DNA of 35,614 nucleotides. Source: Ignavibacteriales bacterium (GTDB lineage Bacteria > Bacteroidota > Ignavibacteria > Ignavibacteriales > Ignavibacteriaceae). The stretch lies in assembly GCA_003141435.1 (NCBI GenBank), contig PLLW01000087.1, forward strand, positions 41,313 to 76,926, given 5' to 3'. Position numbers and translations under genes: made by a program. Below, piece after piece: positions 4,909-10,131 of this stretch. Under the pieces are notes generated by a model. The model saw only the letters and a program-made list of their open reading frames with translations. It was not told where the DNA came from and did not search any database. The stretch's first letter is position 1; each line of letters opens with the position of its first letter.

Positions 4909-5193
4909 TTATGAAAATTTTATGAACTTAATTCTTTCTTCTTTGAAGAATGTGTTTATCTTTTCTACGATAATGCTTTCACTGAATTTTAGCTCGCTGC
5001 GCCAAACCGAATTCTCTACTTTCAGGAATAAGGTTTTCTTATCAACCTTAACAGCTTTGGCAACTTTGCCTAAATCCGGAAATATTTCAAAGAAATTTTC
5101 CACTACCTCAGTCTCTTTAATTCTTTTTCTTAAACCTTCAAACTCAGGTTGAGAATCAATAATATCCGATAATTTCAAGAAACCATTATCCAC
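4909..5193 (-). CDS. dciA: DciA-like (DUF721) replicative helicase loader
   Basis: This is a DUF721 protein. DciA members of this family load or recruit the replicative helicase DnaB in bacteria that lack DnaC and DnaI. The C-terminal half carries the family pattern: a hydrophobic strand (KTLFLKVENSVWRSEL) followed by a helix ending in an Asn (IIVEKINTFF). The frame is open from a TTG at 5197-5199, but I chose GTG at 5191-5193. It lies 6 nt after a strong GGGGGAG ribosome site (5200-5206), whereas the TTG touches that site with no spacer. This gives 94 residues and an 8-nt overlap with recF. The start codon lies inside an exact DnaA box. Its position between recF and gyrB agrees with a replication role. 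The helicase-loader role is inferred from family and neighbours. Confidence 0.85.
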   Translation of the reverse strand: MDNGFLKLSDIIDSQPEFEGLRKRIKETEVVENFFEIFPDLGKVAKAVKVDKKTLFLKVENSVWRSELKFSESIIVEKINTFFKEERIKFIKFS

Positions 5194-5194
5194 A
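5186..5194 (+). promoter_or_regulatory. Consensus DnaA box over dciA start / recF stop
   Basis: TTATCCACA reads on the plus strand at 5186-5194, an exact match to the classical DnaA box. On the minus strand the same nine bases contain the likely dciA GTG start (5193-5191) and the recF TAA stop (5188-5186). A single 9-mer could arise by chance, but its exact placement on a second start codon in the replication operon parallels the box over dnaA. Binding is not shown. Confidence 0.5.
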
Positions 5195-6298
5195 GGCAAC
5201 TCCCCCTGACCTTAGATTTATATGTCTGTCATTTCCGTTTTTCGGCATGAATGCAGTATTTGTCAAGTCAGTCATAGTAATAAATGCTTGCCCAAGTTCT
5301 CTTAAATATTCACTGATTCTCTGAGATCTCTTCATATCCAATTCTCCAAAAATATCATCAAGAAGGAAAAGTGGCACAATTCCCATAATTTCTTTTAAAT
5401 AAAAGAATTGGGCAAATCGCAAAACTACCTGGAATGTTTTATGTTGCCCCTGAGAACCATAAGTTTTAAGATTTAAATTATTTATTTCAAGTAAAAAATC
5501 ATCTCTGTGTGGCCCGACAAGGTTAGAAGAGCGTTTGAGTTCTTCATTTCTTTTTAATTCAATCAATCTCGTAAACTCCTCTTTTAATCCAGATCCATCA
5601 TAATTCTCCAGATAAGAATATTTTAATCCAGGAACCTCGTCGTTTCCCATAATAATTTTATATGAAGCAGCTATATATTTTAAAAAATTTGAAGTAAAAT
5701 TTAATCTGTAATTTATAAGACTTAAACCTGAATCAATTAGTTTTTCTGTCCATGCGTCAAGTTCATCAAAAAGATACTGTCTCCTATCTTCCTTCAGTTG
5801 GAACAAGAGTGCAGATCGCTGCCTTAAAGTCTTACTGTAATCTAATAAAGTTTTCAGATAATTTTCGCTTGATTGTGAAATAACAGAATCGACGAATCTT
5901 CTTCGTTCTGCAGGGGGTCCTTGGGTAATGTAGTGGTCTGAAGGAGTTAAAATTACAACAGGGAATGTTCCTATTATATCTGCTGATCGAGAAATAAGTT
6001 TTGTATCTTTAAAGTAATGTTTTTTATTGTCTGCAACTGAATAGACAATTCTTACTTTATTTTCACTTAAATCATTAAATATTCCATTAAGTTCGAATCC
6101 TGCTTCATTAAAACTAACCGCTTCAATATCTGATGTTGAGTTATTACTTTTACTTGTACAAAGATAATAAATACCCTCAAGAACTGTAGTTTTACCCTGT
6201 CCGTTTCCTCCGATTATAAAATTGAGTTTATCAGAAAAATTCAAATATGTGTCTTTATGACTTCTAAAATTCTTTAAATTAATAGAAGATAAAATCAT
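5186..6298 (-). CDS. recF: DNA replication/repair protein RecF
   Basis: The 370-residue SMC-like ATPase helps RecO and RecR load RecA at gapped DNA and stalled forks. The Walker A motif GGNGQGKT is at residues 30-37, near the start as expected for this family. The signature region YGSQGQHKTFQVVLRFAQ and the Walker B motif PLFLLDDIFGELD are both near the C-terminus. The N-terminus, starting at ATG 6296-6298, begins with the family pattern 'L-NFR-' (INLKNFRSHKD). The gene starts directly after the dnaN stop with no spacer, and its stop overlaps dciA, so the four genes are almost surely cotranscribed and probably translationally coupled. Confidence 0.97.
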   Translation of the reverse strand: MILSSINLKNFRSHKDTYLNFSDKLNFIIGGNGQGKTTVLEGIYYLCTSKSNNSTSDIEAVSFNEAGFELNGIFNDLSENKVRIVYSVADNKKHYFKDTKLISRSADIIGTFPVVILTPSDHYITQGPPAERRRFVDSVISQSSENYLKTLLDYSKTLRQRSALLFQLKEDRRQYLFDELDAWTEKLIDSGLSLINYRLNFTSNFLKYIAASYKIIMGNDEVPGLKYSYLENYDGSGLKEEFTRLIELKRNEELKRSSNLVGPHRDDFLLEINNLNLKTYGSQGQHKTFQVVLRFAQFFYLKEIMGIVPLFLLDDIFGELDMKRSQRISEYLRELGQAFITMTDLTNTAFMPKNGNDRHINLRSGGVACG

Positions 6299-7408
6299 TT
6301 AATTATTCAGACGTACCGGCATAAGCAACAACATGAGATCTTCATTTTCGGAAAGTGCAGTAGGTTCAATTATACACGCTTTAGTGGGAGAATGAAGTTT
6401 AAATATCAACTCCTCACTATTCACATGAGAAAGTATCTCGCTTACATATGCAGTATTAAAACCTATATCCATTGGCTCGCCACTATAATCGCAATAAATG
6501 TTCTCGGTTGCATTTGAACCATGATCAACATCTTCAGCTGATATTTCCAGATTATTTTTTCCAATTGAAAATTTAACCTGTTTGGAGTTGGAAGCAGAGA
6601 ATAAAAGCATTCTCCTAATCGCGGAATGGAGATTATCTCTTTTTACTTTTAACTGGTTTTCATTTTCTGCAGGAATAACGCTTGAATAAGCGGGATATTT
6701 TTCTCCTATAAGACGTGAAGTAAATTCAAGTTCATCTATATGAAAAGAGATATTGGTTTTACTGAAAAATATTTTTACATCAGAATCAGTAAGGAGTTTT
6801 GAAAGCACTGAAATAGCTCTTTCTGGCACTATGTATTGTTCCTCGGCATCTGTTTTAACAGTTTTATAAACATATTTAACCAAGCGGTGTCCATCTGTAG
6901 TGACAAACTTCAAGCCTTCTTTAGTAAATTCCAATAGGGTCCCTGTCATAGCTGGCCGCATATCTTCTTTGCTCATCGCAAAAGATGTCTGATCAATTGC
7001 TTTTTTAAGATCTGTTCCATTTATTGAAATTTCTTTTTCTTTCACAACAGATGGAATTGCGGGAAATTCTTCAGGCGAAGAATAACTTAGATTATATACT
7101 CCATTTTCTGTTTTAATTTTTAATTTTTGATTATCTTCAACTTCAAAATGAATCTGCGTATCCGGTAAGGAACGGATTATATCATATAATAGGCGTGCGG
7201 GGATAACCATTCTCAAATTTTTATCTGCATTAACATTTAGTATTGACCTTAATGCAATTTCAAGATCGGTTGCACTAACTGTTAATAATCCATCTTTAAT
7301 TTCGAATAGGAAATTTTCCAGAATGGGCATCGGTGTTCGACCTGGTACCGCAGGAATAATCTTGGATAAAAGCTTCTCTATTACCCTGCTATTTATTTTG
7401 AATTCCAT
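6299..7408 (-). CDS. dnaN: DNA polymerase III sliding clamp (beta subunit)
   Basis: This 369-residue beta clamp forms a dimeric ring around DNA and tethers polymerase III and other clamp-binding proteins. Three repeated clamp domains of about 120 residues fill the length. Recognisable pieces are the N-terminal PMPILENFLFEIKDGLLTVSATDLE, the central DGHRLVKY and the C-terminal LLLMPVRLNN, which forms part of the clamp-binding pocket. An AAGGAG ribosome site lies at 7418-7423, nine bases before the ATG at 7406-7408. The gene is separated from dnaA by a lipoprotein gene and an AT-rich gap, and abuts recF with no spacing. Confidence 0.97.
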   Translation of the reverse strand: MEFKINSRVIEKLLSKIIPAVPGRTPMPILENFLFEIKDGLLTVSATDLEIALRSILNVNADKNLRMVIPARLLYDIIRSLPDTQIHFEVEDNQKLKIKTENGVYNLSYSSPEEFPAIPSVVKEKEISINGTDLKKAIDQTSFAMSKEDMRPAMTGTLLEFTKEGLKFVTTDGHRLVKYVYKTVKTDAEEQYIVPERAISVLSKLLTDSDVKIFFSKTNISFHIDELEFTSRLIGEKYPAYSSVIPAENENQLKVKRDNLHSAIRRMLLFSASNSKQVKFSIGKNNLEISAEDVDHGSNATENIYCDYSGEPMDIGFNTAYVSEILSHVNSEELIFKLHSPTKACIIEPTALSENEDLMLLLMPVRLNN

Positions 7409-7547
7409 TAAAACATTCTCCTTCTAAAACATTTAAATTTACTAAATTTTTATTGGAATCTCAATGAAAATATTAGTTATATGAGCCCTTATAATACGCC
7501 CGAGATGACATATCTTATACCAATTTATTTTATGGTTTTTCCCCATA

Positions 7548-7943
7548 TTAGGGACTTGTTGGCGCTGCCTGGTCGTCACTGCTGGATATAGTAGCATATA
7601 AAACATATGCACCATTATTTGTTAAGGTGGAGGTATACATAACCAAAATTCTCGTTCCAGCCGAAATAGTCAAATTTCCGCTTACCGCTCCTTGTGAAGA
7701 CCCACTTAGAGCATTGACCGGAATGGCAAAATTTGTGTCGTAGTTGTAGGTACCCTTTGGTATTTCCTGCAAAATCACAGAATTCCCCGGTGTCAGAGTA
7801 ATATCTTCACCTCTGAAATTAACATACACAGTTCCTTGAGCTAAATTTGTAAATGTGACTGAGTTGTTAACTTTTCCTGAACATCCATTTATCAAAATAA
7901 ATGATAAAATAAAACAAATGAATAGAGGTAATCTATATTTCAT
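7548..7943 (-). CDS. Small predicted lipoprotein, function unknown
   Basis: I do not recognise this 131-residue protein. It has a short basic N-terminus, a hydrophobic stretch and a lipobox (LINGC, Cys21), so it should be lipidated and anchored to a membrane. The mature part is rich in Ser, Thr, Asn and Gly and in beta-strand-like stretches (VTFTNLAQGTVYVNFRG, then GTRILVMYTSTLT), and suggests a small beta-sandwich. The tail ends DDQAAPTSP. The ATG at 7941-7943 has an AGAGG ribosome site five bases upstream, so translation looks real. Its position between dnaA and dnaN, normally adjacent genes, is unusual. It is probably a recent or lineage-specific insertion into the origin region. Confidence 0.8.
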   Translation of the reverse strand: MKYRLPLFICFILSFILINGCSGKVNNSVTFTNLAQGTVYVNFRGEDITLTPGNSVILQEIPKGTYNYDTNFAIPVNALSGSSQGAVSGNLTISAGTRILVMYTSTLTNNGAYVLYATISSSDDQAAPTSP

Positions 7944-8285
7944 TTTAGCCTCTTAATACTTAATAGAAAATTATATCAAAGAATTATAATAATCAATAAA
8001 TTTATGGATACACACATCATTATTAATATTATCTATATAAAGATATAATATAATAGTTATAATAAGGATGTTAATATGTTAATAAGCATATATTAGTTAA
8101 AAATCGAACGAAAAAGAAGACAATCATAATAATTGAATGTTGGTAAGTAGTGTGCGAAGCTAGATTTTATCATGAGTTGTTGATAAGCCATGGTTTATTC
8201 ACAAATACTTTTGGACATACGGACATATTATCGACATCATTTTTTTGCGTAAAAAAACACATCTTCAAAATGGGAATATTGAGGA
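7944..8285. other. oriC: AT-rich gap downstream of dnaA, candidate oriC unwinding region
   Basis: This 342-bp stretch has no convincing gene. The left half, roughly 7950-8110, is almost entirely A and T (for example the run at 8021-8090). The right half, 8178-8236, carries three sites with zero or one mismatch to TTATNCACA. An additional one-mismatch site (TGTTAATAA, 8077-8085) lies in the AT-rich part. In many bacteria the unwinding element lies between dnaA and dnaN and is flanked by DnaA boxes, and this layout fits that. Box orientation is mixed. That this is the working origin is inferred from sequence layout. Confidence 0.6.
8178..8236. promoter_or_regulatory. Cluster of three DnaA boxes
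   Basis: Three nine-base sites lie within 59 bp. TGTTGATAA at 8178-8186 is a minus-strand TTATCAACA with one mismatch to TTATNCACA. TTATTCACA at 8195-8203 matches TTATNCACA exactly. TTATCGACA at 8228-8236 has one mismatch. The cluster flanks the AT-rich run to its left, as expected for an origin. The last box is 50 bp from the dnaA stop codon. Confidence 0.6.
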
Positions 8286-9704
8286 TCATGTACTGCTTAA
8301 TTCAATCTGTGTCCGGAGATTATCGACCAGATGCTTGACAGTATTATCGATTATTTTCATTCCCTCAATTGTGTTGCAGGCGTGTATTACAGTAGAATGG
8401 TCTCGTCCCCCAAAGTTCAAACCGATAGTTTTTAATGAACATTTTGTAAGTTCTTTTGAAAGATACATTGCTACCTGCCGTGCAAGCACAACTTCCTTTT
8501 TCCTAGTTTTATCTCTTATTTTATTTTCATCTACTTTCAGATAGTTACATACGGTTTTAGTTATTGTTTCAATAGTAATATTTATTTTTCTATCTGTAGC
8601 AATTTCCTGAACGGTTTTTTTGGTAAGTGCAAGATTGATTTCCCTAGAGTTTAAAGATACATTTGCGAGGAGTTTTATTAAACACCCCTCGAGTTCACGG
8701 ATATTGGAAGTAATATTTGAAGCAATATATTCCAGAATATCATTAGCAATATTCATTCCATAATCTTCAGATTTCTTTTTCAGTATAGCTATCCTTGTTT
8801 CAAGATCAGGAGGCTGAATGTCAGCAGTTAATCCCCATTGAAATCTTGAAATTAGTCTATCATCCAGCCCCTTCAGATCCTTTGGAGGTTTATCGCTGGA
8901 AAGTATGATTTGTTTTCTTAATTGGTGAAGTATATTGAATATCTGAAAAAAATAGTCCTGGGTCTTCTCTTTTCCTATCAAGAATTGGATATCATCGATA
9001 ATGAGAACATCCATATTTCTGTAAAAATTAGAAAACTCATTTATCTTATTTGATTGAATGGCTTCAACAAATTCAACAGTAAAGGTATCAGCTGAAAGAT
9101 AAATTATTTTTTTATCAGGGAAATTATCGAGAATTTTATTCCCGATCGCTTGAATCAAATGTGTCTTTCCAAGTCCAACTCCGCCGTACACAAAAAACGG
9201 ATTAAATGATGTTCCTCCGGGGTTATCACTGATAGCACCTGCCGCAGCTCTTGCAAGTTGATTTCCCTCCCCTTTTATAAAATTGTCAAACTTATAACGA
9301 GGATTAAGGAAAGTTTCGAATACTGATTTTAACTTTGTAGAAATTGCGGTAGAATTATTTGATGGCAGTTCTTTTTTAATTGACGAGGATATTTCAAAAG
9401 TTTCTTTTTCTTCGGAAATAACGTAGGCAAGTTTAGCATTTGGCCCCAATACCTCATGAATCGTTTTAGTGATTAATGTATTAAAATGCTCATCTATCCA
9501 TTCCCAGAAAAATTGGCTTGGCAGCTGAACTTTTAATATAGAATCTGACATTTCTAATGGTTTTATTGGTAAAAACCATGTGTTATATGTCATCTGAGAC
9601 ACGTTATCCTTAATAACGCGAAGACATTCTTTCCAAGTGGCTGAAATGTCGCTTGAAAAATTATTGTTTATAGATGAGATATTAGAAGTTAAATAGTTAT
9701 CCAC
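8286..9704 (-). CDS. dnaA: Chromosomal replication initiator DnaA
   Basis: The 472-residue AAA+ initiator binds DnaA boxes, unwinds the origin and recruits the helicase. Domain I spans roughly residues 20-95 (TWKECLRVIKDNVSQMTYNTW), followed by a short linker. The AAA+ domain has Walker A GGVGLGKT at 174-181 and a Walker B/DEAD-like strand (VLIIDDIQFLIGKEKTQ). Domain IV ends with the DNA-binding signature GGRDHSTVIHACN at about 432-444. The start is GTG at 9702-9704. A stop codon lies two codons upstream in frame and no ATG occurs before domain I, so this start is nearly forced. No clear ribosome site precedes it. An exact DnaA box covers the start codon, consistent with self-repression. Confidence 0.98.
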   Translation of the reverse strand: MDNYLTSNISSINNNFSSDISATWKECLRVIKDNVSQMTYNTWFLPIKPLEMSDSILKVQLPSQFFWEWIDEHFNTLITKTIHEVLGPNAKLAYVISEEKETFEISSSIKKELPSNNSTAISTKLKSVFETFLNPRYKFDNFIKGEGNQLARAAAGAISDNPGGTSFNPFFVYGGVGLGKTHLIQAIGNKILDNFPDKKIIYLSADTFTVEFVEAIQSNKINEFSNFYRNMDVLIIDDIQFLIGKEKTQDYFFQIFNILHQLRKQIILSSDKPPKDLKGLDDRLISRFQWGLTADIQPPDLETRIAILKKKSEDYGMNIANDILEYIASNITSNIRELEGCLIKLLANVSLNSREINLALTKKTVQEIATDRKINITIETITKTVCNYLKVDENKIRDKTRKKEVVLARQVAMYLSKELTKCSLKTIGLNFGGRDHSTVIHACNTIEGMKIIDNTVKHLVDNLRTQIELSST

Positions 9705-9705
9705 A
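9697..9705 (+). promoter_or_regulatory. Consensus DnaA box over the dnaA start codon
   Basis: TTATCCACA lies at 9697-9705, an exact match to the classical box. On the coding strand it reads TGTGGATAA, so the GTG start and the codons for Asp2 and Asn3 are inside the box. DnaA autorepression through boxes near its promoter is known in several bacteria. A box directly on the start codon could affect transcription elongation or act as part of the origin. Binding is inferred. Confidence 0.6.
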
Positions 9706-10131
9706 ATTTATTTGAAGAAAAATGTTGAAATTTATATTTAAAAAAGACCATCTATTTTCTTGCATATTTTTTACCAACAATTTATTAACATTAAACAAAT
9801 TTTATTAACCCCCCTTAATTAAGCAAGTTAAGAGCATTTGTTTTAGCCCCGCCCACATTTTCCAAAATAAAATTAACCGTTTATTTTGCTTTATGATTTG
9901 TGAAACATTTTCACAAAGAAAAGTTACCCACATTTAATGAACAGCAAGAATGCGGCTTTAACCACCTGAAAAAATAGCAAGGAAACCCTCGCGTAGCAAA
10001 TTAATTCTTTTATTTTAATAAAATATATTTATTGGATTTGGTAATTATTAATTATTTAAGAGATCAAAAGGACTTGTTATTTGTATATTAGGTTGTTATT
10101 TTTAAAGTCTTTTTGAAATTAGGAGTTGAGA
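9706..10131. other. dnaA-rpmH intergenic region with DnaA-box-like sites
   Basis: This 426-bp divergent spacer must hold the promoters of the leftward dnaA block and the rightward rpmH block, but I see no unambiguous promoter hexamers on either strand. It contains box-like sites TTATTAACA (9782-9790) and TTACCCACA (9924-9932), each one mismatch from TTATNCACA or TTATCCACA. It also holds a run of six C (9809-9814), a CTTAATTAAG palindrome (9814-9823) and the long palindrome annotated separately. The right part (10001-10060) is strongly AT-rich. It may form the second half of a bipartite origin. No open frame longer than a few dozen codons was seen. Confidence 0.55.
9897..9917. promoter_or_regulatory. 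Perfect palindrome, operator-like
   Basis: TTTGTGAAA and its exact reverse complement TTTCACAAA are separated by three bases (CAT), giving 9-bp arms in a 21-bp site. The core TGTGA-N7-TCACA resembles a CRP/FNR-family operator, although the classical spacing is N6. It sits midway between the divergent dnaA and rpmH genes. It is not followed by a T-run, so it is not a terminator. The binding protein is unknown. Confidence 0.45.

What the first reader, a model, noticed from the sequence alone, without database searches (positions are those of the whole stretch)
5186..9705. Exact DnaA boxes on the GTG start codons of both dnaA and dciA
TTATCCACA occurs at 9697-9705 across the dnaA GTG and at 5186-5194 across the likely dciA GTG; in the second case it also contains the recF TAA stop. 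Both genes therefore open with GTG-GAT-AA. I estimate by base composition (about 36% GC) that an exact 9-mer would be expected about 0.5 times in the window on both strands, so two copies placed on two replication start codons are noteworthy. DnaA could directly repress its own gene and its helicase loader, linking initiator level to helicase loading. DciA being the loader is known for this family; the joint control is inference.
Basis: partly seen in the sequence, partly recalled or inferred. Interest (0 to 1): 0.65.

Follow-up and report, generated by a model that had tools for sequence, protein, structure and literature searches.

The report
Conserved dnaA box, chance dciA box
Of two identical binding sites for the replication starter protein DnaA, the one at the start of the dnaA gene is conserved across a bacterial order as part of the probable replication-origin and self-control region, while the one at the start of dciA is found in this genome only and looks like a coincidence made by a single ATG-to-GTG change.

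Summary

dnaA site: a real DNA element. An exact box lies at the same distance from the conserved DnaA Trp codon in 62 of 83 species of the order (Ignavibacteriales), and 17 more have a one-mismatch form; control spans score 2 of 3804. In 37 of the 62 the box is out of frame with dnaA or followed by a stop, so it is conserved as DNA. It ends a same-orientation DnaA-box array upstream of dnaA. With a second cluster and a DnaA-trio-like element between dnaA and dnaN, this forms a probable bipartite oriC and autoregulatory region.

dciA site: not conserved. None of 76 relatives has an exact box at the dciA start. Nearly all start with ATG, and the only same-genus genome has TATGGATAA, one substitution away. 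A rhomboid gene in the same genome also starts with an exact box on GTG.

Joint dnaA-dciA control is not supported. The most unusual by-product is a palindrome, GTGAAA(N)GTTTCAC, next to the distal DnaA boxes in 77 of 83 species.

The parts
9697..9705 (+). Exact DnaA box TTATCCACA (TGTGGATAA in the dnaA direction) on the dnaA GTG start
   Evidence: conserved in 62/83 species of the order, one mismatch in 17 more
8286..9704 (-). dnaA
   Evidence: Pfam Bac_DnaA 7.4e-69, DnaA_N, Bac_DnaA_C
9771..9790 (-). Middle pair of degenerate DnaA boxes, TGTTAATAA-AT-TGTTGGTAA
   Evidence: coordinates; conserved position near -150
9898..9916 (.). Palindrome TTGTGAAAATGTTTCACAA
   Evidence: core GTG.AA-N2..4-TT.CAC in 77/83 species at -258..-298; the only GTGAAANNNTTTCAC in this genome
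9924..9932 (+). Distal DnaA box, degenerate here (TTACCCACA); exact TTATCCACA in the same-genus relative
   Evidence: exact in about 41 of 83 species in the bins -320 and -300
8047..8085 (-). Tandem degenerate DnaA boxes followed by TTATTA repeats: candidate unwinding element (DnaA-trio-like) between dnaA and dnaN
   Evidence: pattern in 19/83 species on this strand, 0 on the other, 0 in shuffles
8178..8203 (.). DnaA-box-like pair downstream of dnaA (TTATCAACA on minus 8178-8186; TTATTCACA on plus 8195-8203)
5186..5194 (+). Exact TTATCCACA on the dciA GTG start and recF TAA stop; probably coincidental
   Evidence: exact box absent in 76 relatives; same genus has TATGGATAA
4909..5193 (-). dciA (DUF721 helicase loader)
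   Evidence: Pfam DciA 3.5e-13
5186..6298 (-). recF, overlapping the dciA start by 8 bases

Best explanation
The dnaA-start box is the gene-proximal end of a conserved array of same-orientation DnaA boxes that fills the dnaA 5' region. DnaA bound there most likely represses dnaA (autoregulation), and the array most likely also serves as the upstream half of a bipartite oriC whose unwinding half lies between dnaA and dnaN. In some lineages, this one included, the GTG inside the box became the dnaA start codon. The dciA copy arose in this lineage by an ATG-to-GTG start-codon change in the context T-ATG-GAT-AA and has no demonstrated role. Shown here: conservation, position, frame independence, the array, and absence at dciA. 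Inferred: DnaA binding, repression and the origin role.
For: Exact box at the dnaA start in 62/83 species and one mismatch in 17 more, against 2/3804 control spans. In 37/62 it cannot be translated in frame with dnaA. Upstream of dnaA there are 305 relaxed boxes in the dnaA direction and 27 against it, with 23.6 expected in shuffles; downstream there are 226 against 20 expected. Tandem 11-bp spacing and a trio-like element. Local GC-skew minimum just upstream of dnaA in the window. For dciA: no exact box in 76 relatives, ATG start in 72 of 78, same genus T-ATG-GAT-AA, and a rhomboid gene with the same GTG-GAT-AA start.
Against: No binding or expression data. The trio-like pattern was found in only 19/83 species with my strict pattern. 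The promoter and transcript start of dnaA are unknown, so repression rather than another effect is assumed. Only one same-genus genome was available to judge the dciA site.
Confidence: 0.8

Rival explanations
1. One reading: DnaA binds both start codons and jointly represses its own gene and the helicase-loader gene.
For: Exact consensus at both start codons; DciA is a helicase loader in other bacteria (PMC5109545).
Against: The dciA box is absent from all 76 relatives tested, including the same genus. dciA lies inside an operon-like run of overlapping genes (dnaN-recF-dciA-gyrB), so a block there would also hit gyrB. Chance copies on GTG starts occur in the same genome.
Confidence: 0.07
2. 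Both boxes are by-products of coding: T-GTG-GAT-AA is simply V-D-N/K at a GTG start.
For: About 17 of the 39 genomic copies are read as V-D-N/K inside genes; the gyrB codons for V-D-N of EVVDN give the box in three relatives; a rhomboid gene starts the same way.
Against: For dnaA the box is kept where it is out of frame (31 species) or followed by a stop (6 species). This reading fits dciA only.
Confidence: 0.03
3. The dnaA-start box acts only as part of the origin (DnaA loading, looping to the dnaA-dnaN half) and does not regulate dnaA transcription.
For: It belongs to a polar array with tandem 11-bp spacing and is paired with a downstream cluster and trio-like element, as in bipartite origins (PMC5043019).
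Against: Its fixed place at the dnaA start, about 70 bp or more from the other boxes, fits transcriptional or translational control too; autoregulation through upstream DnaA boxes is widespread (PMC8203912).
Confidence: 0.25

Closest known systems
dnaA autoregulation through DnaA boxes in the dnaA promoter (E. coli, B. subtilis and others; review PMC8203912)
   Same: Consensus TTATCCACA box in the dnaA 5' region, with further boxes near it
   Different: Here the conserved box sits on or about 6-15 bases before the start codon, and in some species the start codon is inside it; repression is not tested
Bipartite origin flanking dnaA (oriC1/oriC2, Epsilonproteobacteria; PMC5043019)
   Same: DnaA-box clusters upstream and downstream of dnaA, with the candidate unwinding element downstream
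   Different: Different phylum; upstream boxes all in one orientation, with an added palindrome; no unwinding data
Basal unwinding system, tandem DnaA boxes plus DnaA-trios (PMC8287927, PMC6669920)
   Same: Tandem box-like sites followed within a few bases by TTATTATTA, which reads 3'-AAT-5' repeats on the other strand
   Different: Boxes are degenerate; the strict pattern was found in 19 of 83 species only
Predicted origin of Melioribacter roseus (PMC3534657)
   Same: Related organism; origin placed in the 303-bp dnaA-dnaN region, where the trio-like element is seen here
   Different: The main-text passages retrieved do not mention an array upstream of dnaA

Membership tests
dnaA autoregulatory DnaA box | Consensus DnaA box in the dnaA 5' region, conserved in relatives | tested here: met
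   62/83 exact, 17/83 with one mismatch
dnaA autoregulatory DnaA box | DnaA binds it and represses dnaA | not testable with these tools
   needs footprinting and reporters
Bipartite oriC around dnaA | DnaA-box clusters on both sides of dnaA above chance | tested here: met
   upstream 332 against 23.6 expected, downstream 226 against 20 expected
Bipartite oriC around dnaA | DnaA-dependent unwinding in the downstream half | not testable with these tools
   only a sequence pattern was seen
Basal unwinding system | DnaA box(es), short spacer, repeated trios | tested here: inconclusive
   present in the window and 18 other species with a strict pattern; not detected in the rest
DnaA-regulated dciA | DnaA box at the dciA start conserved in relatives | tested here: not met
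   0 exact of 76 relatives; 2 with one mismatch; same genus TATGGATAA
parS site (for the palindrome) | TGTTTCACGTGAAACA | tested here: not met
   the palindrome has the half-sites in swapped order; a one-mismatch parS lies elsewhere in the genome, G000:C121:7830

The most novel reading that the evidence does not exclude
The palindrome GTGAAA(N)GTTTCAC beside the distal tandem DnaA boxes is the site of an unrecognised origin-binding regulator of the Ignavibacteriales (half-sites like those of parS but in swapped order), acting with the DnaA array on initiation and dnaA expression.
Probability: 0.35. Interest if true: 0.6.

Novelty: new member of a known kind. Interest (0 to 1): 0.32.

Why it matters
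It separates a conserved replication-control site from a coincidence that looked equally striking by eye. It also gives a concrete, testable origin architecture for a poorly studied bacterial order: a polar DnaA-box array ending at the dnaA start codon, a conserved palindrome, and a candidate unwinding element on the other side of dnaA. The claim that DnaA controls its helicase loader should not be carried forward from this window.

Tried and rejected
Joint DnaA control of dnaA and dciA was rejected on non-conservation. The pure coding-coincidence reading was rejected for dnaA and kept for dciA. The palindrome as parS was rejected: half-sites are in swapped order and real parS-like sites lie elsewhere. 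An Rfam scan of the window gave nothing. A literature search for a DnaA box on a start codon gave no paper; one for Ignavibacterium oriC gave one paper. Eleven of the 59 short stretches fetched around dciA starts gave no alignment and were left out.

Full report
Observation. TTATCCACA occurs twice in the window, at 5186-5194 and 9697-9705, on the GTG codons of dciA and dnaA. Dinucleotide shuffles give 0.35 copies per window and at least two in 6 of 100; the genome holds 39 in 3.08 Mb. The count alone is weak evidence, so the positions have to be judged by comparison.

The dnaA site. The window belongs to an Ignavibacteriaceae-type genome. I took dnaA with its flanks from 83 species of the order and used the codon of the conserved Trp (residue 23) as reference. 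Between -90 and -40, 62 of 83 have exact TGTGGATAA and 17 more have one mismatch, mostly TGTTGATAA, TGTGGACAA or TGTGGAAAA. Equivalent 50-bp spans elsewhere in the same loci have it in 2 of 3804. In 31 of the 62 the GTG is out of frame with dnaA, in 6 it is followed by an in-frame stop, in 11 an in-frame ATG follows, and in 14, the window included, it is the only upstream start. The box is therefore kept as DNA whether or not it is translated, and its use as a start codon is secondary.

Its surroundings. In the region upstream of dnaA, relaxed boxes number 305 in the dnaA direction and 27 against it (23.6 expected from shuffles on both strands). They fall in three places: a tandem pair 11 bp apart near -295, a pair near -150, and the start box. 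In the window the distal box is degenerate (TTACCCACA, 9924-9932) and the middle pair is 9771-9790. Downstream of dnaA there are 226 boxes against 20 expected, in both orientations. In 19 species, the window included (8047-8085), tandem boxes are followed by TTATTA repeats that resemble the basal unwinding system (definition in PMC8287927). The local skew minimum lies just upstream of dnaA in the window and near dnaA on average in 19 loci. For Melioribacter roseus the origin was predicted between dnaA and dnaN (PMC3534657). The best reading is a bipartite origin around dnaA, as in Epsilonproteobacteria (PMC5043019), with autoregulation through the upstream array, as known elsewhere (PMC8203912). 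Binding and repression are inferred, not shown.

The dciA site. In 76 relatives with a readable dciA start, none has an exact box within 25 bp and two are one mismatch away, close to what permuted motifs give. Start codons are ATG in 72 of 78, most often in T-ATG-CCT-GA or T-ATG-CAT-AA. The same-genus genome reads T-ATG-GAT-AA, so a single ATG-to-GTG change gives the box; the outgroups indicate that ATG is the older state. In the same genome a rhomboid gene (Pfam Rhomboid, E=2.4e-31) also opens with T-GTG-GAT-AA, and about 17 of the 39 genomic copies are in-frame V-D-N/K codons inside open frames. In three relatives the gyrB codons for V-D-N of EVVDN give a box at one fixed place. The dciA box is therefore most likely a coincidence. 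A species-specific role cannot be excluded, because only one same-genus genome was available.

The palindrome. Just dnaA-ward of the distal boxes lies GTGAAA(N)GTTTCAC, at -258 to -298 in 77 of 83 species and in four genomes of one family outside the order. The strict 15-base pattern occurs once in this genome and 0-3 times in 30 relatives. Its half-sites are those of parS in swapped order, but true parS-like sites lie elsewhere. The fourth arm position varies (A or G), which would also fit two inverted weak DnaA sites. What binds it is unknown; no described counterpart was found in one literature search.

Verdict. Observation confirmed. The dnaA part is real and of a known kind. The dciA part and the joint-control model are not supported.

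Noticed in passing
window 9898-9916: Palindrome TTGTGAAAATGTTTCACAA beside the distal DnaA boxes upstream of dnaA; core conserved in 77 of 83 species of the order at a fixed place and rare elsewhere in the genomes.
   Followed up: partly
window 8047-8085: Tandem degenerate DnaA boxes followed by TTATTA repeats between dnaA and dnaN, a candidate origin-unwinding element shared by 19 of 83 species.
   Followed up: partly
L303 (G000:C109, box at 40617-40625): A rhomboid protease gene of the same genome also starts with an exact DnaA box on its GTG codon, a useful chance control.
   Followed up: yes
window 7548-7943: A 131-aa lipoprotein-like ORF without Pfam match between dnaA and dnaN; similar short lipoprotein-like starts are seen at this place in some relatives.
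   Followed up: no
L044:14422, L058:14823, L061:11764: Exact boxes at the same codons of gyrB (V-D-N of EVVDN) in three relatives, explained by coding.
   Followed up: yes
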